32,478 nucleotides of DNA from an uncultured Bacilli bacterium (GTDB lineage: Bacteria > Bacillota_I > Bacilli_A > RF39 > UBA660): positions 1-32,478 of the forward strand of contig CALVJM010000006.1 of the NCBI GenBank assembly GCA_944332155.1. The letters run 5' to 3'. This document shows positions 6,761 through 26,131 of the stretch, in pieces (position 1 is the first letter of the stretch; every line of letters starts with the position of its first letter). The position numbers were made by a program, and so were the translations under genes. A model generated the notes under the pieces. The model saw nothing but the letters and a program-made list of their open reading frames with translations. It searched no databases and was not told the origin of the DNA.

Positions 6761-8194
6761 TTATTCTAAACCATCTTTATAAGGATACCACCAATCTCTA
6801 TTTTGATTACTGGTATCATAATTAATAATCTTCATTTTCATAGCTTCTTTTACAGCATCTCTTGATAAATTAAAACCAACAGAACTATCTTTTGTTCCTA
6901 TCCATGGTACTTGAGGCATTGGAAGATTTACCTCATTAATCCATATCATTCCTATTTGTAAACTATTTATAATATCTTCATGCTTAATAGAATCATTAGT
7001 CCAGAGACTACAACCCAAACCGTAACTTGATTCGTTAATAATTTGCGTTAGTTCTTTTGAATTTTCAAATGATGCGATAAATACAATTGGTGCAAATAAT
7101 TCGGGAATATTTGCTAATTCAAAATTATTAGTTAATTCAATTACTGTTGGTAATACATAATTACCTTTTGAAAATTCATCACCAATTGGGTAATCAGAAC
7201 AAAAAACTTTACATTCTTTACATTTTTTATATTTATTAACTAAATGATTAACTTGTTCAAATTTTTCTTTTGAAATCAATGGACTAATTTCAATACCTAA
7301 TCGCAATTTTTTTATCTCTTTCTTAAGTTTCTTAATAAATTCATCATATATAGTATTTTTTACTAAAATTTTTTCTGTAGCTACACATACTTGTCCTGCA
7401 TTTGAAAAAGCACCCCACACAATACCTTTAACTGCAAGTTCTATATTAGCATCGTCTAAAACAATAGCATAGTCACTACCGCCTAATTCCAAATTTAAGT
7501 TTTTAATTTTATTCTTATTGGTTGTACAGATATCTTTACCTACTATAGTACTTCCTGTAAAAGATATTGCATCTACCAAATTGTTTCTAACTAAAATTGA
7601 TCCTGTCTTATAATTACCTGTAACAATATTTACAACCCCATCTGGTATTTTTGACATTTGCAAAAGCTTATATAGTAACAGACCTGTTTTAGTTGAATAT
7701 TCTGACGGTTTATACACAACAGTATTTCCAGCTATTAATATTGGGATAATAGCCCAAATAGTCATTTCGAACGGATAATTCCATGGTTTTAATACAGCAT
7801 AAACACCTATAGGTTCATATTTAACAAATGAACTTTTATTTGGCCACATACTATTATCTATTTCTAATTTTTTCATTTTAAATAACTCATCATAATCTTC
7901 GTCCAAAAAATATTTAATAATATCACATGATTCTAAAACCTCAGTAATAGCCTCACATTTAGGTTTACAAGTATCATAACAAATCATTTCAACTATTTCC
8001 TCTTGTTTTTCTTCTATTAAACGTAAAAATTGTTTAAGTACGTTTTTTCTTTCTGTTATAGTTTTTATAGACCAACCTGTAAAGGCTCTTTTTGCATTCA
8101 AACACGCTTTATTAACTTTAGAATCATCAAAAATTTCAACATCATATAATTTTTTGTTATTATGTGGTGATAATTTTTCAAAATATTCTGTCAT
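6761..8194 (-). CDS. NAD(P)-dependent aldehyde dehydrogenase
   Basis: A 477-residue cytosolic aldehyde dehydrogenase of normal length with the full active site: PWNYPFE (137-143), Lys162 in YKPSE, Glu236 in LELGGSD and the nucleophile Cys270 in NAGQVCVATEK. It most resembles the succinate-semialdehyde/betaine-aldehyde group; the substrate is uncertain. The ATG overlaps the TGA of a decayed upstream gene as ATGA and follows GGAGGAAAGGAAAG, so the two were translationally coupled. It has more Asn/Lys/Ile and AT-rich codons than its neighbours and is flanked on both sides by broken genes, consistent with an acquired segment. It is transcribed from the palindrome-containing promoter at 8514. Confidence 0.9.
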   Translation of the reverse strand: MTEYFEKLSPHNNKKLYDVEIFDDSKVNKACLNAKRAFTGWSIKTITERKNVLKQFLRLIEEKQEEIVEMICYDTCKPKCEAITEVLESCDIIKYFLDEDYDELFKMKKLEIDNSMWPNKSSFVKYEPIGVYAVLKPWNYPFEMTIWAIIPILIAGNTVVYKPSEYSTKTGLLLYKLLQMSKIPDGVVNIVTGNYKTGSILVRNNLVDAISFTGSTIVGKDICTTNKNKIKNLNLELGGSDYAIVLDDANIELAVKGIVWGAFSNAGQVCVATEKILVKNTIYDEFIKKLKKEIKKLRLGIEISPLISKEKFEQVNHLVNKYKKCKECKVFCSDYPIGDEFSKGNYVLPTVIELTNNFELANIPELFAPIVFIASFENSKELTQIINESSYGLGCSLWTNDSIKHEDIINSLQIGMIWINEVNLPMPQVPWIGTKDSSVGFNLSRDAVKEAMKMKIINYDTSNQNRDWWYPYKDGLE

Positions 8195-8471
8195 ACGCTT
8201 TCCTTTCCTCCCTCATTATAATTCTTTTGGAATAACTTAACCTCATTCATATCATAAATTCCTCAATCTTTACCTAAATTTCTCATTAAATTGATTCCAT
8301 TTGTTAAATCTATCAAACAGATTTTCATTGAAATAATTGCTTTATCATAATTCAACAGAACTGTTTTAAAACCGAATCGATGAGAATTCCTTCTCAACCA
8401 TATTTTTTATTACTTTTTACAATCTCAGCACCTCTTTCTAAATCTTTGTTTGAAATGCATTTTACAGTCAT
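8191..8471 (-). pseudogene. Decayed small gene formerly coupled to the aldehyde dehydrogenase
   Basis: From an ATG at 8471 (GGAAAG ribosome site) one reads MTVKCISNKDLERGAEIVKS, then an in-frame TGA after KYG, EGILIDSVLKQ, a one-base frameshift, LNYDKAIISMKICLIDLTNG, a second TGA after LGKD, and GIYDMNEVKLFQKNYNEGG ending in TGA that overlaps the dehydrogenase ATG. Two nonsense codons and one frameshift break a protein of about 93 residues. The intact ends, the ribosome site, the promoter and the four-base overlap show it was a real gene. I do not recognise the family. Confidence 0.55.
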
Positions 8472-8513
8472 ATTATCACTACTTTCCTTATTCCCCAATC
8501 TAATTATATTTTC

Positions 8514-8542
8514 ATTATAGCATTTCATAGTCATGAAAAAAA
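8514..8542 (-). promoter_or_regulatory. Promoter with 14-bp palindromic operator, aldehyde dehydrogenase transcript
   Basis: TATAAT (8514-8519) with the inverted repeat TTCAT-4-ATGAA (8524-8537) in the spacer and a T-rich -35 region. It repeats the arrangement at 4427-4455, including the adjacent hairpin. The predicted start of transcription lies about 35 nt before the ATG at 8471. Confidence 0.5.
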
Positions 8543-8552
8543 AGATTCTGAT

Positions 8553-8579
8553 ACAAAAAACTAGATATTTCTATCTAGT
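8553..8579 (-). terminator. Terminator after the 64-residue membrane protein (ACTAGA hairpin family, copy 4)
   Basis: Arms ACTAGATA (8560-8567) and TATCTAGT (8572-8579) form a perfect 8-bp stem with a TTTC loop (plus strand). On the minus strand a T6 run follows at once. A strong intrinsic terminator. Confidence 0.75.
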
Positions 8580-8596
8580 AAATACGATTTTAATTG

Positions 8597-8791
8597 TTAA
8601 ATAATTGAAAAAACAATTAATAAAATTCCAACTATTACAAAAATGCCACCCCATACTCTAAGAACATTTTTCATTTTTGGATTTTTTAACCATTTATCGG
8701 GAATTCTAGGGCTTTTAAGTTTCATAAAGAACTGAGGATTCATCATCATAAAAATGGCAACTATCGTAATTAAAACTCCTGTAATTAACAT
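8597..8791 (-). CDS. Small two-helix membrane protein (64 aa)
   Basis: Two predicted membrane helices (about 2-18 and 46-63) flank a basic loop with NPQFFMKLKSPRIPDKW. This resembles the short DUF6199-type membrane proteins of Firmicutes, whose function is unknown; the assignment is by eye. It lies 29 bp downstream of another small membrane-protein gene and is followed by a strong terminator, so the two form a small operon. An AGGAGG-like site (TTAGGAGGTAGTGT) precedes the ATG. Confidence 0.65.
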   Translation of the reverse strand: MLITGVLITIVAIFMMMNPQFFMKLKSPRIPDKWLKNPKMKNVLRVWGGIFVIVGILLIVFSII

Positions 8792-8820
8792 ACACTACCT
8801 CCTAACATTTCTTATAAAAA

Positions 8821-9021
8821 TCATTTGTTTTTTTCATTTTTTGAAATATATAATACCAATAAAATGATTCCTGTTAAATTAATTCCTATTGATAATCCTA
8901 GTAGTAACCCTGAACTAAATTCACCAAATGGTGTGGTTTCATTACCACAGAAAAAAATATATGATAAATACAATACATTTCCGAGTATCATCATCAATAT
9001 TCCAGTTTTCCCTTTATTCAT
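8821..9021 (-). CDS. Small two-helix membrane protein (66 aa)
   Basis: Two predicted membrane helices (about 7-25 and 36-58) with a short polar loop CGNETTPFGEFSSG and a Lys-rich C-terminus. Family not recognised. It is first in a two-gene unit with the 64-residue membrane protein. A ribosome site (GGTGAGG) precedes the ATG, and a TATAAT lies at 9068-9073. Confidence 0.6.
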   Translation of the reverse strand: MNKGKTGILMMILGNVLYLSYIFFCGNETTPFGEFSSGLLLGLSIGINLTGIILLVLYISKNEKNK

Positions 9022-18730: not shown

Positions 18731-19289
18731 TTACCTATATTTCTCAGCAGCTTTCTTTAGCAAATCGTCCAAATCATTACTTAAATTAAGTTCTATATCA
18801 TCTAAATTTATTTGTTCTTTTTGTTCAAATTGAAACTGCATAATAAATTCACTAAAATTATGTGCTACTAAATATGTATCTTCGACTTTGTCATGAATCC
18901 AGAAATAAATATGGTGATTTTTTTTTATCCATACAGACCAGATTTCCTCCTGGTAAATCTGCTATGGGAAATAAGTTTGATGGAATAATATCTTGATAAA
19001 ATAAAATTTTTTTCTCCAAATTATTGGCATCATTACCAAGATCAAAAATAGAATCTAATTCAACACTCTTCTGATTAAGTACTTTTTTCAAAGAAGCACT
19101 AAGCGTAAATAAACAGTTATCTTTTATGTAATCATTTCCATAATATTGTAAATAAAATACATAATCAGCGGGTAAAACTAATGAATATTTTTTTTGAATT
19201 TTTTCAATACAATCCATCCCCCATACATTAGAGTTTTGCTTCATCTCAGTATCAATAATTTCATCTAATTTGATTTTTAAATTATCCAT
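18731..19289 (-). pseudogene. SUKH-family (SMI1/KNR4) immunity protein, frameshifted in an A9 tract
   Basis: The first frame (19289 to a TGA at 18891) gives 132 residues with SUKH features: MDCIEKIQKKYSLVLPADYVFYLQYYGND and IIPSNLFPIADLPGGNLVCMD. The domain should continue, and it does in the next frame: after MDK, removing one A from the run at 18918-18926 reads KNHHIYFWIHDKVEDTYLVA, then HNFSEFIMQFQFEQK, ending AAEKYR-TAA at 18731. The repaired protein is about 185 residues, normal for the family. SUKH proteins neutralise polymorphic toxins. An AGGAGG ribosome site precedes the ATG. A 9-base A run could be a sequencing error, a slippage site or phase variation, so the gene may still be functional. 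Confidence 0.8.
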
Positions 19290-19442: not shown

Positions 19443-20156
19443 TTAATCATTGAAATGTACTAAATCATAAGGATAATATTGCTGTTCTTTTAATTCTTTA
19501 TCATCTAATTGTAAAATTTTTGCAATTGCTCCCGCTTCATACGCCCAATAGCCATAATAAGTATCTTGTTTACTCTTATGACTATCATACCAAGCACACT
19601 CATTATGAATTTCATACCACTGTTTTTCTAAGTAATTTTTTAACATTTTTGAAGAAATAAGCTTGTCTTTTTCCTTAATAATCTCTCTAACTGGTTCGTA
19701 AATACCTTTGAATTGAAATTCGTTTGATTTCATTTCCCAAGTTGAGTCAATGAATTTCATTAAGTAATTAAGTAAATAGTCATTTAATTGTTCATTACTT
19801 ATTTTTTCTTGCAAATCTTTAAATTCATTTTTATTTATATTCAATAATATGCCTAACGATAGCACTCTTACTAATTCTATATATCCATATTTTATTTCCC
19901 ATGCAAATGAATAATATTCTAAAAATTTTTTAAAATCTTTTTTAATATCCAAAATAGGCATTCCTAAGGAATATAATAAATTTATTTTTTTTGTATAATA
20001 CATTACTAGGGCATTATATCCATTTCGAGTTCCTTGCGAATCAATCCCCTGTTTTTCTATCACTTGTGGTAAAATTTTTTCAAAATCCTGTATACTTTCT
20101 ATTGTGAATAATAATGATTTTTTTAAATAATCTTCATTTTTTATTTGATCTCTCAT
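19443..20156 (-). CDS. PoNi immunity protein (DUF1910/DUF1911)
   Basis: A 237-residue cytosolic helical protein. The N-terminal half (about 1-115) fits DUF1910 and the C-terminal part DUF1911: WYDSHKSKQDTYYGYWAYEA, GAIAKILQLDD and QQYYPYDLVHF are family-diagnostic. PoNi proteins bind and inhibit PoNe DNase toxins in contact-dependent competition. Here the gene begins 2 bp after the end of the PoNe reading frame, the expected pairing, and is intact although the toxin is not. It may protect against PoNe-armed kin (an orphan immunity role; inference). No ribosome site stronger than GAAAGGAAATT is seen. Confidence 0.88.
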   Translation of the reverse strand: MRDQIKNEDYLKKSLLFTIESIQDFEKILPQVIEKQGIDSQGTRNGYNALVMYYTKKINLLYSLGMPILDIKKDFKKFLEYYSFAWEIKYGYIELVRVLSLGILLNINKNEFKDLQEKISNEQLNDYLLNYLMKFIDSTWEMKSNEFQFKGIYEPVREIIKEKDKLISSKMLKNYLEKQWYEIHNECAWYDSHKSKQDTYYGYWAYEAGAIAKILQLDDKELKEQQYYPYDLVHFND

Positions 20157-20158
20157 CT

Positions 20159-20749
20159 CTAATTTCCTTTCGGTTTTTTACCATTTAAAAAACTCTCAAC
20201 TACATTTCCTTTAGAATCAACATTAATTAATGTATATTGAACATTATCTGGATTTAATGTCATTTCCAACAGAATTTCTTTTGCTTTCTATGTGCCAACA
20301 ACATTCTCTAATCTATCGACAATTCATTTATTACTCATTTGACGAGTGCCATCCTTTAATGTACTTAACTTAGAAGTTCCATATTTTGCTTCACTAATCA
20401 CAAATTTTGGTGGTCCTATCGTTGAATCTTCATAAATTCCATCTATTCCTTGATGTATTTTATCATCCAAAGAAGTTACTCTATCTTTACTGATTCTATT
20501 GAGATTTTTAACAGTTTCTTCATAAAAATAATCTTGAACTATTTCTGCAAAGTTACCTTTTTGTTTGCTGTTTTCAAGAATAATATCATCATTTTTAACT
20601 CTATTAATGATATCATCTGATTCACCAATACTTTTATCTAGCTTTTTACCAATATCATTAATATTCAACCCATTGATTTTATCTATTGATATATTCTGTT
20701 TCTTGAGTTCCACTAATATATCTACTTCCCTCATGTTTGTTTTCCTCAA
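20159..20749 (-). pseudogene. PoNe-type DNase toxin domain with two in-frame nonsense codons
   Basis: One frame runs 196 codons from 20749 (TTG; an ATG lies at 20734) to a TAG at 20159-20161, interrupted by TGA at codon 142 (20324-20326) and TAG at codon 154 (20288-20290). The core matches the PD-(D/E)xK-like PoNe nuclease: KGNFAEIVQDYF (Glu69), RISKDRVTSL, GIDGIYED (Asp103), ISEAKYGTSKL (Glu120, Lys122) and DGTRQMSNK. The region after the stops (VDRLENVV, NVQYTLINVDSKGNVVESFL) is the normal family C-terminus. No delivery domain (LXG, WXG or Rhs) precedes it, so it is an orphan cassette. The truncated 141-residue product keeps the catalytic residues but is probably unstable. Confidence 0.8.
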
Positions 20750-20925: not shown

Positions 20926-22056
20926 TTAAGAGCTTGTTTCTTCATTTAAACTATGAACCCATCGATAATATCGCTTACGTATCTTTATAGAAATTTTTCT
21001 ATTGTAAATAAATTTAAATAGACATTGTCTAAGATATTCAATAATAATACCAACAACAAAAATTAATACTGATACAGCTAACATATAAAAGAAAAAAGAA
21101 AGTGAATAAATAGGTGCAGTACCTACTCCTAATTTTACATATAAACTATAACGCATTAAAGTATGGTCATGTAATAAATATACACCTAATGTACAAGCTG
21201 ATATTTTACTAATCCATGAACTCTTAAAAGAAAACGTTGCGAATAATAGAAAATATGCGAGCGATTGAACAATCACAAATGGATTACTATAGGCCATTTT
21301 CATTCCCAGCATATTTTGGAATAAGTGGTTTGTAATTCTATTCGTATTCATATAAACATCTAATGTTGTATTAAAACAATAATTGGCAATTACACATCCA
21401 ATACAGAGAAAAAATAAAATTAATTGTACTTTACTTTTGGTAAAGCACTTACCAATATTACTCTGTAAAAAAGGATACTTGCGAAAATACGCACCTAGAA
21501 GATATAAAAATAAAAATTGATACAAAGTATAACCATCATTAGGAAACCCTTGTCCTCCTGTAATATAAGGTATAATAGAAAAAAAGACAAATAAACACCA
21601 TAATAACTGTTTGTGTTGACGTTGGTTAATATTCTTAATCATTATATTTAAAAAAGGACTCAAACAATAAAGAATAATGTACATTTTAACAAACCAATAT
21701 TCATCAGTTAAAATGGGTGATAATTGATTTAATAAAGAGACTGGTCCTAAAGTATTATGGAATAACAACACCGCAACTAATACAATCATTATCTTATAAA
21801 ACATGGTTGAATTGATAAGTTGCCAAACTTTAGATGCTTTAAATTGATTTGTACATTGAAAATATCCCGTTACTAATACAAAAGAATTCACATGAACCAA
21901 ACAGATTAAAAGTACTATTTCCGTGATTAAGTATAAAGTATAATTATGAATATTCGCAAGTACATTACCATGTACTATCACATGATACAAGACAATAAAA
22001 AACATGGATAAAATTTTCATCAAATCATAATTTGCATTTCTAGCATTTTTTTTCAT
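20926..22056 (-). CDS. Acyltransferase-3 family membrane protein (O-acetyltransferase)
   Basis: A 376-residue membrane protein with about ten helices. The N-terminal signature NYDLMKILSMFFIVLYHVIVHG carries the conserved His of the acyltransferase-3 (OafA/WecH/OatA) family, and EYWFVKMYIILYCLSPFLN is also typical. Such enzymes move acetyl or succinyl groups onto extracytoplasmic sugars. There is no fused SGNH domain, but a separate SGNH protein is encoded at 25349-26131. AGGAGCC precedes the ATG. It is divergent from the flippase and probably decorates the polysaccharide made by the neighbouring genes. Confidence 0.88.
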   Translation of the reverse strand: MKKNARNANYDLMKILSMFFIVLYHVIVHGNVLANIHNYTLYLITEIVLLICLVHVNSFVLVTGYFQCTNQFKASKVWQLINSTMFYKIMIVLVAVLLFHNTLGPVSLLNQLSPILTDEYWFVKMYIILYCLSPFLNIMIKNINQRQHKQLLWCLFVFFSIIPYITGGQGFPNDGYTLYQFLFLYLLGAYFRKYPFLQSNIGKCFTKSKVQLILFFLCIGCVIANYCFNTTLDVYMNTNRITNHLFQNMLGMKMAYSNPFVIVQSLAYFLLFATFSFKSSWISKISACTLGVYLLHDHTLMRYSLYVKLGVGTAPIYSLSFFFYMLAVSVLIFVVGIIIEYLRQCLFKFIYNRKISIKIRKRYYRWVHSLNEETSS

Positions 22057-22301: not shown

Positions 22302-23537
22302 ATGAAAGATAGAATTAAGAAAAATTTCTTTTGGAACACAATTGGTTCTACTTTAAATGCAATGGTTTCTTTATTTTTTATGATTGCCGTTACTAGAATC
22401 AACGGAAGTGATAAAGCAGGTATTTTTACTTTTGCCTTCTCTACTTCTTGTTTATTACAAGTAATCGGTTTATATTCCGGAAGAACTTATCAAGTCACAG
22501 AGCGAAATAAAAATATTACAGATGATGACTTTATATATAATAAATTATTTTGTTGTTTAATAATGTTAATTGCTTCGCTTCTTTTTGTTGCCTTCCGTGG
22601 TTATGATGGTTACAAAATATCAGTAATTCTCACTCTAGTTTTATACAAACTAATTGAAGCTTTTGCAGAATGTATATATGCGATTATTCAAAAGAAAGAT
22701 GAATTATATAAAGTAGGAATTTCCCTATTTTTGAAAGGGTTAATCGCAACTATATTATTCGTTCTTGTAGATTTACTAACACATAATTTAATCCTATCTA
22801 TTATCGCAATTATTTTAACACAGTTAATCATATTATTCTTCTATGATCTTAAAAATGTAAGTGAAATAAACTTTACAAAATTAAACTTTAATAAAAAGAA
22901 TATTTTATGGATTTTTAAAATGGGAGCTTGTACTTTTTTAGTTACCCTACTAACCCAATATGTGATTAACGCACCTAAATATACCATAGATAGTTATTTA
23001 ATCAACTCTAGTCAAACGATATTTGGAATTATTGTCATGCCTGCCACTTTAGTCATTCTATGTGGTCAATTCTTAATTCATCCATTTTTAAATAAACTAG
23101 CTAATTATCTAAAAGAGAAAAAATTTGACTTATTTAACAAAACTATTATCAAATTATGTTTTTTAATCTTTTTATTGGGATTATTTATCATTGTTGTTGC
23201 TTATTTTATAGGTATTCCATTTTTAGAATTAGTGTATGGTATTCCACTACAAAAATATCTATATGATTTAATTATTATCTTATTTGGAGCCACTTTCTTT
23301 GGTATATCATTCGTTATTTCCAATGCTTTAATCGCATTAAGATATACTTTCGCTCAAGTCATTATTTTTATTATTTCATCTATCTTCACCTTTTTTGCTT
23401 CCCGCTTCTTAATTATTAATTATGAACTTTTAGGCGCTTCACTAGCGTATACTTTCACTATGATTACTCTTGCATTATTATTTATTATTTATTACATCTA
23501 TAAAATTAGGAAGGTGTTCAAAAATGAAAAAATCTAA
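22302..23537 (+). CDS. Polysaccharide flippase (Wzx-like)
   Basis: A 411-residue polytopic protein with about 12 helices of the MATE/MviN/Wzx superfamily. The opening RIKKNFFWNTIGSTLNAMVSLFFMIAVTRINGSDKAGIFTFAFS is characteristic of Firmicutes O-antigen/teichoic-acid-type flippases. It would move an undecaprenyl-linked oligosaccharide across the membrane. AAAGGATTCG precedes the ATG. The last 14 bp overlap the first GT2 gene, and the second GT2 follows 11 bp later, so the three form a transcription unit. No Wzy polymerase is seen in the window. Confidence 0.9.
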   Translation: MKDRIKKNFFWNTIGSTLNAMVSLFFMIAVTRINGSDKAGIFTFAFSTSCLLQVIGLYSGRTYQVTERNKNITDDDFIYNKLFCCLIMLIASLLFVAFRGYDGYKISVILTLVLYKLIEAFAECIYAIIQKKDELYKVGISLFLKGLIATILFVLVDLLTHNLILSIIAIILTQLIILFFYDLKNVSEINFTKLNFNKKNILWIFKMGACTFLVTLLTQYVINAPKYTIDSYLINSSQTIFGIIVMPATLVILCGQFLIHPFLNKLANYLKEKKFDLFNKTIIKLCFLIFLLGLFIIVVAYFIGIPFLELVYGIPLQKYLYDLIIILFGATFFGISFVISNALIALRYTFAQVIIFIISSIFTFFASRFLIINYELLGASLAYTFTMITLALLFIIYYIYKIRKVFKNEKI

Positions 23538-24516
23538 AGTATCTATTATTATACCTGTATATAATGCCGAAAAACATTTAAGTCGATGTATTGAGAGTGT
23601 TTTAAATCAAACATATACACAAATAGAACTAATACTCCTTAATGATGGTTCTAAAGATAAATCAATCGATATTATTAGAAAATATGAGAAAAAAGATAAA
23701 AGAATTATTGTTATTGATAAACAGAATGAAGGTGTTGCGAAAACTAGAAATTTAGGTATTCAAAAAGCAACCGGTGATTATCTTATGTTTATTGATAATG
23801 ATGATTATATTGATCCTGATTATGTGGAAACTTATCTAACAACCGCATTAAAAGAAAAAACAGATATTGTTATGGGTGGTTATAAACGACCTAATACAAA
23901 CGGTAAAATTATTAAAAATGTTAAACTTAAAGATGGATATTTACAAAAGGAAATGATATATAAAATATGTGCTCCATGGGCTAAAATATATAAAAGAAAT
24001 TATATTATACAAAATAAAATAGAATTCCTAGATAACAATTTAGGAGAAGATATATATTTTAACTTACAAGCTCTTATGATTTCAAATAAAGTAACTACTA
24101 TTCATTATGATGGATATAATTGGTTTTATAATGACGAAAGTGTTTCTAATACAACTCAAAAGAAATTTGAAAAGGTAGATGTTTTTCGTTTATTAAATGA
24201 ATGTTATAAAGTTGTTACAGAAAAAAATTTGTTAAAAAAGCATTTTAATTATACAGAATATTTCTTTTATATTTATATCATATGGTTTTTGTGTTTTTCA
24301 CAAAGACATTACTCTTATCATCAGATATCTCAAAATTATGATAAGTTATTTAACTGGTTAAAAGATAAGTTCCCAAATTATAAAAAGAATGAATTTATTG
24401 GTTTTAATAAACCAAAAGACGAAAATTTTATATATAAACTATTCTTCTTTCTCTTCAGCATATTCAATCGTTTTGGAAATGGTAAAATATTAATATATTT
24501 ATATACAAGATTATAA
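23524..24516 (+). CDS. Family 2 glycosyltransferase
   Basis: A 330-residue GT-A enzyme: VSIIIPVYNAEKHLSRCIES (6-25), LLNDGSKDKS (38-47), the AKTRNLGIQKATGDYLMFIDNDD segment with the metal-binding Asp91-Asn-Asp93-Asp94, and an acceptor region (LGEDIYFNLQAL). There is no transmembrane segment apart from a hydrophobic C-terminal stretch (about 295-325) that may attach it to the membrane. The ATG at 23524 is chosen because AGGAAGGTG lies just upstream and the upstream frame is the flippase tail. The sugar is unknown. Confidence 0.88.
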   Translation: MKKSKVSIIIPVYNAEKHLSRCIESVLNQTYTQIELILLNDGSKDKSIDIIRKYEKKDKRIIVIDKQNEGVAKTRNLGIQKATGDYLMFIDNDDYIDPDYVETYLTTALKEKTDIVMGGYKRPNTNGKIIKNVKLKDGYLQKEMIYKICAPWAKIYKRNYIIQNKIEFLDNNLGEDIYFNLQALMISNKVTTIHYDGYNWFYNDESVSNTTQKKFEKVDVFRLLNECYKVVTEKNLLKKHFNYTEYFFYIYIIWFLCFSQRHYSYHQISQNYDKLFNWLKDKFPNYKKNEFIGFNKPKDENFIYKLFFFLFSIFNRFGNGKILIYLYTRL

Positions 24517-24527
24517 CGGAGGTATTT

Positions 24528-25322
24528 ATGAACAAAAATATACATACATTTGTCGTATTAGCGTACAAAGAATCTACTTACTTAGAAGATTGTATCAACT
24601 CAGTTTTAAATCAAAGTATCAAAACTAATGTTGTTATCGCAACATCTACCCCTAATGAATTTATTAATCAAATGGCAGAAAAATATAATTTAAAAGTTAT
24701 TATTAACAAAGGACAAAAAGGAATCGCCTATGATTTTAATTTTGCGGTAAATTGTGTTGACTCAGAACTTGTTACAGTTGCCCATCAAGATGATATATAT
24801 GAAAAAGATTATGCGAAAGAAATTATAGATGCGTATAAGAAAAATAAAAATGCTTCTATTATTTTTACAGATTACTTTGAATTACGTGGATCTGATAAAG
24901 TTTTAAATAATAAGAACCTTAAAATTAAAAGAATCTTATTATTACCACTTAGAATTAAAACACTAGGAAAATATAAATTTTTTAGAAGATGGGTATTACG
25001 ATTTGGAAATTCTATTTGTTGTCCAGCTGTTACTTTTGTCAAAAAAAATAGTATTAAAGATGTATTTATTTGTGACTTTAAGTGCAATGTAGATTGGTAT
25101 ACATGGGAAAAATTATCTAAAGCGCCACATGATTTTATATTTATTCCAAAACCATTAATGGAACATCGAATTTCTGAATCTTCAACTACTACAGATATTA
25201 TTAATCATGGTATTAGAACAAAAGAAGATCTTATTATGTTTGAAAAATTTTGGCCAACATGGTTTGCGAAAGGAATTAATAATTTTTATAAGAATTCAGA
25301 AAAAAGTAATAATTTAAAATAA
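24528..25322 (+). CDS. Family 2 glycosyltransferase
   Basis: A 264-residue GT-A enzyme with a divergent start (HTFVVLAYKESTYLEDCINS), the metal site HQDDIY at about residues 88-93 and a conserved NSICCPAVTFVKK segment. It resembles small capsule glycosyltransferases that annotate as GT2. ACGGAGGTA precedes the ATG, 11 bp after the previous glycosyltransferase. It is the last gene of the plus-strand unit, ending at a bidirectional terminator. Substrate unknown. Confidence 0.82.
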   Translation: MNKNIHTFVVLAYKESTYLEDCINSVLNQSIKTNVVIATSTPNEFINQMAEKYNLKVIINKGQKGIAYDFNFAVNCVDSELVTVAHQDDIYEKDYAKEIIDAYKKNKNASIIFTDYFELRGSDKVLNNKNLKIKRILLLPLRIKTLGKYKFFRRWVLRFGNSICCPAVTFVKKNSIKDVFICDFKCNVDWYTWEKLSKAPHDFIFIPKPLMEHRISESSTTTDIINHGIRTKEDLIMFEKFWPTWFAKGINNFYKNSEKSNNLK

Positions 25323-25349
25323 AAAAGAAAATTGAACATTTTCTTTTTT
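25321..25349. terminator. Bidirectional terminator between convergent genes
   Basis: A perfect 12-bp AT-rich stem (25321-25332 with 25338-25349) and TGAAC loop between the plus-strand glycosyltransferase stop and the minus-strand SGNH stop; the TAA codons of both genes touch the stem ends. Confidence 0.75.
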
Positions 25350-26131
25350 TAAAACTTTTCATTATAATATTTTAATCCACTACTTATTACTTTCTCTTCT
25401 TTATGTATATCACGATTATAAGGTTGTAAAGTTTGAATGAAGTTAGCTAAATAAGGACTAATCTTTTGATATCCTTGATCTGTTAGATGTACTCCATCTA
25501 ATAACTCATTTTTGGTAATTACAGTTGCTAAATCTTTATCATAAAAATTAATATATGGAATTCCCCATTTTTCACAAATCTGAATTAACGCATCAAAATA
25601 TTCTTCTGGTTCACCTGTTTTACCAGTCCATCCATATTCATCCGCATAAGGTGTTGGATACATAATCATTACACCAATAGAAGAACCTTTATAATATTTA
25701 GTTAAATAATAAAATGTTGCATCTAACATACCTGTATAAGTAGATAAATCAAAGTCTTGTAATTGATAAGAATCAGTGAACTCTCCTAATGCAACTGGAA
25801 TCTTCGCATCATTAATTCCACCTTGTAATAAAATATAATCATATTTTTCATCTTTGTGTTCTAATACTTGTGTCACAATCATATTTTCTAAGTTTTCTTG
25901 GGAAAAAGTTGCTCCTCCTTTAGAAGCATTCACACTCTTTTTAAACTTTAAAATATCATTAATATAATTTGTCCAAGAAATACCATTATTGGTTCCACCT
26001 TCAGTAATAGAGTCACCAAAATAAATAATACTTTTATCTGTCATTTTAAAATTCTTATTTTCTTGAGCATTTGTTTCTATAAAAATAAATGCGATTAAAC
26101 CACATAATAGTATTACAAATAACTTCTTCAT
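25349..26131 (-). CDS. Secreted SGNH/GDSL-family hydrolase
   Basis: A 260-residue protein with an N-terminal signal or anchor helix (3-19; cleavage possible after TNA). The SGNH blocks are present: nucleophile Ser41 in YFGDSITEGG, Gly in NASKGGATF, Asn in LQGGINDAK and the Asp/His pair in LLDGVHLTDQGY. The protein is therefore an extracytoplasmic esterase or acetyl-hydrolase. Beside an acyltransferase-3 gene and a polysaccharide cluster, removal or remodelling of O-acyl groups on surface sugars is the likely role (inference). A TTGTAA/TATAAT promoter overlaps the terminator of the next locus. Confidence 0.85.
   Translation of the reverse strand: MKKLFVILLCGLIAFIFIETNAQENKNFKMTDKSIIYFGDSITEGGTNNGISWTNYINDILKFKKSVNASKGGATFSQENLENMIVTQVLEHKDEKYDYILLQGGINDAKIPVALGEFTDSYQLQDFDLSTYTGMLDATFYYLTKYYKGSSIGVMIMYPTPYADEYGWTGKTGEPEEYFDALIQICEKWGIPYINFYDKDLATVITKNELLDGVHLTDQGYQKISPYLANFIQTLQPYNRDIHKEEKVISSGLKYYNEKF

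What the first reader, a model, noticed from the sequence alone, without database searches (positions are those of the whole stretch)
18918..18926. SUKH immunity gene split at an A9 homopolymer
Removing one A joins two frames into a normal-length SUKH protein of about 185 residues. Everything downstream still codes sensibly to its own TAA. A 9-base run is a classic slippage site, so immunity could be phase-variable, corrected by transcriptional slippage, or simply a sequencing error.
Basis: seen in the sequence. Interest (0 to 1): 0.6.

Follow-up and report, generated by a model that had tools for sequence, protein, structure and literature searches.

The report
Frameshifted SUKH immunity gene, likely decaying
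A bacterial gene for an anti-toxin (immunity) protein is knocked out of frame by a single extra A in a run of nine; it sits beside a broken toxin gene and most likely is a freshly inactivated leftover rather than an on/off switch, which makes it interesting but ordinary.

Summary
The minus-strand gene 18731-19289 encodes a SUKH (SMI1/KNR4) immunity protein. It is split at A9 (T9 on +, 18918-18926) into a 132-aa ORF and a 61-codon remainder in another frame, ending in its own TAA. Both halves are recognised independently by a SUKH profile (E 6.5e-47 and 1.6e-19), and the remainder has normal coding statistics, so a real gene was broken once, probably recently. The nearest full-length relatives (30-42% identity) mostly follow T7SS LXG toxins on SPbeta-type phages and plasmids; none checked has the A-run at this site. 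The genome has 30 A/T>=9 tracts. At least seven lie in frame inside intact ORFs and only this one splits a gene, which speaks against systematic homopolymer miscalling or a genome-wide slippage habit. The neighbouring PoNe DNase-toxin ORF ends at a premature TGA followed by TAG, its PoNi gene is intact, and two same-genus genomes lack the cassette. Best reading: an acquired, decaying toxin-immunity cassette whose accessory SUKH gene was inactivated by a +1 slipped-strand insertion. Partial rescue by RNA-polymerase slippage is possible. Phase variation has no positive support but cannot be excluded without reads. -1 ribosomal frameshifting is excluded by direction.

The parts
18731..19289 (-). 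frameshifted SUKH (SMI1/KNR4) immunity gene, whole extent: ATG at 19289, TAA at 18731-18733
   Evidence: Shine-Dalgarno AGGAGG just upstream of the ATG (sequence)
18891..19289 (-). 5' ORF as assembled, 132 aa, last ~10 residues aberrant, ends at out-of-frame TGA
18918..18926 (-). A9 tract (T9 on +), the site of the frameshift
18734..18917 (-). 61-codon remainder of the SUKH gene in the other frame, with the conserved FW-H and F-EF motifs
19443..20156 (-). intact PoNi-type immunity gene (PoNi_N + PoNi_C, DUF1910/DUF1911), 237 aa
   Evidence: (E 8e-22 and 1.3e-34)
20324..20749 (-). PoNe-like DNase toxin remnant, 141 aa, ends at a premature TGA with an in-frame TAG 12 codons further on
   Evidence: 9waq_B, the partner chain of a DUF1911 protein, E 3.1e-6; 51% identity to C. 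coli plasmid proteins; stops

Best explanation
A horizontally acquired interbacterial toxin-immunity cassette (PoNe toxin remnant - PoNi - SUKH) in a low-GC, small-genome lineage is decaying. Its last gene, an accessory SUKH immunity gene, was recently inactivated by a one-base slipped-strand expansion of a coding A-run from eight to nine. Shown: the frameshift, coding conservation on both sides, the prematurely stopped toxin neighbour, the intact PoNi, and absence of the cassette in same-genus relatives. Inferred: that the allele is fixed or majority in the strain, that the 132-aa product is non-functional (it lacks the invariant C-terminal FW-H and F-EF elements), and that loss is tolerated because the matching toxin is absent from the strain or its neighbours. 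RNA polymerase slippage on A9 may leave a little full-length protein.
For: Both halves independently match SUKH. The downstream frame keeps normal coding character, so the lesion is recent. The neighbouring PoNe ORF ends at a premature TGA, with TAG 12 codons on, where the solved PoNe chain continues about 77 residues. PoNi is intact. G164 and G028, same genus, have the acyltransferase - GDSL hydrolase - small membrane ORF - sulfatase block without PoNe/PoNi/SUKH, and only 3 of 291 family genomes, this one included, have any match to the SUKH. The homologous site in nine relatives has no A-run, so the tract is private to this gene. Three of 87 relatives are split elsewhere, and a same-class relative, L140, also has a SUKH with two internal TAA, so sporadic breakage is normal for this family. 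A split esaG pseudogene in a tandem T7SS immunity array is described in S. aureus (PMC9484751).
Against: Only one genome of this species is held and there are no reads, so allele frequency is unknown. PoNi has remained intact, so the whole cassette is not simply rubbish. A clean 61-codon remainder is also what slippage rescue or phase variation would leave. The residues after the toxin's stops could not be confirmed as PoNe by homology (no match).
Confidence: 0.62

Rival explanations
1. Assembly or consensus error: the true tract is A8 and the gene is intact.
For: Draft, MAG-like assembly (1.2 Mb, 111 contigs, 93% complete); A9 is the most error-prone kind of site; the downstream frame is intact.
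Against: At least seven other A9/T9 tracts of this assembly lie inside long intact ORFs in frame, including a YqeH-like GTPase, and none of the 30 tracts splits another recognisable gene, so homopolymers are not systematically over-called. The neighbour's stops are not homopolymer changes.
Confidence: 0.17
2. Transcriptional slippage at A9 restores a fraction of full-length SUKH mRNA, so the gene is leaky rather than dead, as with C. rodentium tssM1 (A11, 20-25%) or Buchnera/Blochmannia frameshifted genes.
For: A9 is the length at which selection against slippage becomes evident in many bacteria (PMC1088944). A9 is depleted in this window relative to shuffles, as expected where slippage is harmful. 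Precedents: PMC4256274, PMC3017870. The remainder is free of stops.
Against: The tract is not conserved in any relative. Restoration needs -1 or +2, whereas the best-documented case here (tssM1) works by addition of As. No sign of a genome-wide slippage-rescued class. Depletion may equally reflect replication slippage.
Confidence: 0.13
3. Phase-variable contingency locus: replication slippage A8<->A9 switches an orphan immunity protein on and off under selection.
For: A coding homopolymer and a clean single-base toggle.
Against: The run is short and not conserved in homologues; no enrichment of long A/T runs in this window (depletion); I found no precedent for a phase-variable SUKH or PoNi gene.
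Confidence: 0.05
4. Programmed -1 ribosomal frameshifting at the A-AAA-AAA run.
For: Poly-A runs are -1 slippery sequences in general.
Against: -1 shifting leads to a ~140-aa product that ends early, not to the SUKH frame; +1 is needed. No stimulatory structure downstream (z = +1.1).
Confidence: 0.01

Closest known systems
SUKH (SMI1/KNR4) immunity proteins of T7SS LXG cassettes, e.g. yokK of phage SPBc2, and SUKH genes directly after LXG toxins on Bacillus plasmids
   Same: 30-35% identity over the full length, same length class (185-198 aa); linked to toxin genes, in one case after another immunity gene
   Different: Here the gene is frameshifted, and its neighbours are a PoNe remnant and PoNi, not an LXG toxin; no LXG domain found in the genome
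PoNe/PoNi DNase toxin-immunity pairs (PMC6688995)
   Same: PoNe-like fragment immediately upstream of a PoNi_N/PoNi_C gene
   Different: Toxin stopped early and without a recognised delivery domain; a SUKH gene follows
Heterogeneous polyimmunity loci / orphan immunity genes (PMC3482391; PMC12247911)
   Same: Unrelated immunity genes (PoNi, SUKH) in tandem without a working toxin
   Different: Only two genes, no recombinase seen beside them in the window, one broken
Poly-A frameshifted genes rescued by transcriptional slippage (C. rodentium tssM1, PMC4256274; Blochmannia, PMC3017870)
   Same: Single indel in an A-run of a gene otherwise in frame
   Different: No evidence of expression or conservation; shorter run (A9 against A11 in tssM1); accessory gene rather than a needed one
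esaG4 pseudogene in the S. aureus T7SS immunity array (PMC9484751)
   Same: Immunity gene split into two ORFs among intact neighbours
   Different: There caused by a short insertion, not described as a homopolymer; many paralogues present

Membership tests
SUKH superfamily (SMI1/KNR4) | Profile match above curated cut-off | tested here: met
   SUKH_6 43.3 bits (truncated) and 62.6 bits (joined), cut-off 27; SMI1_KNR4 38.1 and 58.7 bits, cut-off 25.4
SUKH superfamily (SMI1/KNR4) | Conserved core including C-terminal W-H and F-EF elements in one protein | tested here: not met
   Present in the DNA in the second frame but absent from the 132-aa product as assembled: a SUKH gene by descent, not an intact SUKH protein
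SUKH superfamily (SMI1/KNR4) | Neutralises a cognate toxin | not testable with these tools
   needs an assay; the cognate toxin is unknown
PoNe/PoNi pair | PoNi (DUF1911/DUF1910) gene directly downstream of a PoNe domain | tested here: met
PoNe/PoNi pair | Intact PoNe toxin with a delivery domain | tested here: not met
   premature TGA and TAG; 141-aa ORF, no delivery domain found by Pfam
Gene expressed by programmed transcriptional slippage | A/T run of at least 9 joining two conserved frames | tested here: met
Gene expressed by programmed transcriptional slippage | Run conserved in homologues | tested here: not met
   no A-run at the site in nine homologues
Gene expressed by programmed transcriptional slippage | Heterogeneous mRNA and two protein products | not testable with these tools
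   no RNA or protein data
Phase-variable contingency gene | Tract length varies between isolates or reads | not testable with these tools
   one genome per species, no reads; collection scans found no other copy
Phase-variable contingency gene | Unusually long repeat maintained against chance | tested here: not met
   A9 only; such runs are depleted, not enriched, in the window, and 30 tracts >=9 exist in the genome
Programmed -1 ribosomal frameshift | -1 shift reaches the second ORF, with a stimulatory structure | tested here: not met
   wrong direction; no structure

The most novel reading that the evidence does not exclude
The A9 tract is a maintained stochastic switch or slippage site that keeps an orphan immunity protein expressed in only part of the population or at low level, a bet-hedging form of interbacterial immunity.
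Probability: 0.06. Interest if true: 0.6.

Novelty: new member of a known kind. Interest (0 to 1): 0.17.

Why it matters
If it is a plain null allele, it is one more snapshot of how orphan immunity genes turn over: an acquired toxin-immunity cassette in which the toxin is stopped, the cognate PoNi is still intact, and the accessory SUKH gene has just failed at a homopolymer. If reads showed mixed A8/A9 or slippage rescue, it would be, as far as I found, the first stochastically expressed SUKH immunity gene.

Tried and rejected
Close relatives of the SUKH by single-protein scan of genome contigs and viral contigs: none. PoNi in viral contigs: none. Family (291), order (385) and class (395) searches gave only distant SUKH matches, no second copy carrying the tract. 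Reading TGA as Trp, to explain the toxin stop by a variant code, was rejected: 26 window genes use TGG 85 times, contain no internal TGA (they were chosen as table-11 ORFs, so the TGG count and the two genes ending in TGA carry the weight). -1 ribosomal frameshifting was rejected by direction and lack of structure. The tail of the toxin after its stops, searched as a separate piece, matched nothing. No structure prediction was run: it would not separate the hypotheses.

Full report
Observation. The window's minus strand carries ATGGATAAAAAAAAATCACC..., with nine A at 18918-18926. As assembled the ORF is 132 aa (18891-19289). If one A is skipped the reading continues for 61 codons to TAA at 18731-18733 and gives 185 aa; any other change of the run gives a short product. 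The truncated ORF already passes the SUKH_6 and SMI1_KNR4 cut-offs, and the joined protein matches to the very end of both profiles, with about 20 bits more. Decisively, a profile built from relatives finds the two halves as separate hits in the genome, E 6.5e-47 and 1.6e-19, confirmed with a second profile. (The joined reading was one row of those profiles, but the other rows are independent relatives, and the pairwise alignments show the same conserved positions.) Codon statistics of the remainder equal those of intact genes in the window and those of the other frames do not.

Chance and error. A dinucleotide shuffle of the window expects 11.7 A9 sites on both strands; there is one. Long A runs are therefore avoided here, as reported for coding regions of many bacteria, where nine is the usual threshold (PMC1088944). 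The assembly has 30 tracts of A/T >= 9 (counted). Seven lie well inside open frames of about 240-576 codons and keep the frame (an eighth possibly), and only the SUKH tract has long coding on both sides in different frames. That makes a systematic homopolymer over-call unlikely, and also shows that this genome does not carry a class of A-run frameshifts like Blochmannia (PMC3017870). A single wrong consensus call remains possible, since no reads are available.

Relatives. The best full-length relative is in Oceanobacillus senegalensis (42%, L061), in a locus with further SUKH-like genes and repeated toxin-like fragments. The others at 30-35% are yokK of phage SPBc2 and SUKH genes of SPbeta-like phages and Bacillus plasmids, several placed directly after LXG (T7SS) toxins, or after an LXG toxin and another immunity gene. 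The part after the frameshift contains the invariant FW-H and F-EF positions. None of nine relatives checked at DNA level has an A-run there; the residues at that loop vary. Among 87 related loci, three are split between frames (L067, L089, L153), none at a run of six or more identical bases, and a same-class genome has a SUKH relative with two stops inside. Sporadic loss of such genes is thus common, and the A9 is not a conserved device.

Surroundings. Immediately upstream lie an intact PoNi gene (19443-20156) and, before it, a PoNe-like ORF (20324-20749) recognised by the solved chain 9waq_B, partner of a DUF1911 protein, and by Campylobacter plasmid proteins. This ORF stops at TGA, with an in-frame TAG 12 codons further, while the solved chain continues for about 77 residues past that point; the tail could not be confirmed by homology. 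TGA is not a sense codon here. PoNe/PoNi pairs are DNase effectors with cognate immunity, and PoNi genes may also occur as orphans (PMC6688995). In two genomes of the same genus the conserved acyltransferase, GDSL hydrolase, small membrane ORF and sulfatase genes are present without PoNe, PoNi or SUKH, so the cassette was gained in this lineage or lost in theirs; only 3 of 291 family genomes, this one included, have any SUKH match to this query, favouring gain. The genome has no LXG domain but does have a WXG100 gene beside a short FtsK-like ORF and a pre-toxin TG ORF that ends without a recognised toxin domain.

Mechanism. The simplest account is a replication-slippage insertion in a coding A8 run of an accessory immunity gene with no present use: either its toxin is absent or PoNi covers what is needed. 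The product as assembled would end in about ten wrong residues and lack the last conserved elements, so it should not fold as a SUKH domain (inference). RNA-polymerase slippage could restore some full-length message; C. rodentium tssM1 does so at 20-25% on an A11 run, by addition of As (PMC4256274). Here -1 or +2 is required and the run is shorter, so any rescue is likely smaller. -1 ribosomal frameshifting leads to the wrong frame and there is no downstream structure. Phase variation cannot be tested with one genome and no reads; the literature searches gave no precedent for a phase-variable SUKH or PoNi gene.

Verdict. The finding is real and correctly read, and ordinary in kind: a frameshifted orphan immunity gene in a decaying interbacterial toxin-immunity cassette. 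The distinction between null, leaky and switching needs read-level data.

Noticed in passing
window 20324-20749 (-): PoNe-like DNase toxin remnant with premature TGA and TAG directly upstream of an intact PoNi immunity gene.
   Followed up: partly
window 22302-25322 (+): A multi-membrane, flippase-like ORF and two glycosyltransferase-like ORFs lie on the opposite strand between the acyltransferase (20926-22056) and the GDSL hydrolase (25349-26131); G164 and G028 lack them and have the two flanking genes in swapped order relative to the sulfatase, so this polysaccharide locus is a variable spot.
   Followed up: partly
L138 (own genome contig C51) 47-4058: T7SS-like fragment: WXG100 protein, short FtsK-like ORF, small WXG-like ORFs, and a 305-aa pre-toxin TG ORF that ends without a recognised toxin domain; a large serine-recombinase-like ORF lies at 7393-8877.
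   Followed up: partly
L140 1480-1992 (-): Another broken SUKH relative in a same-class genome, with two internal TAA, next to a DUF4272 gene.
   Followed up: partly
L061 2092-8644: Oceanobacillus senegalensis locus with repeated 'MDDILKVDKDGVAAKRVD' toxin-like fragments and several SUKH-like genes: looks like a polyimmunity array.
   Followed up: no
window 20324-20749 (-): A weak NCBIfam match of the toxin remnant to FliN (23 bits, cut-off 84) is presumably spurious.
   Followed up: no
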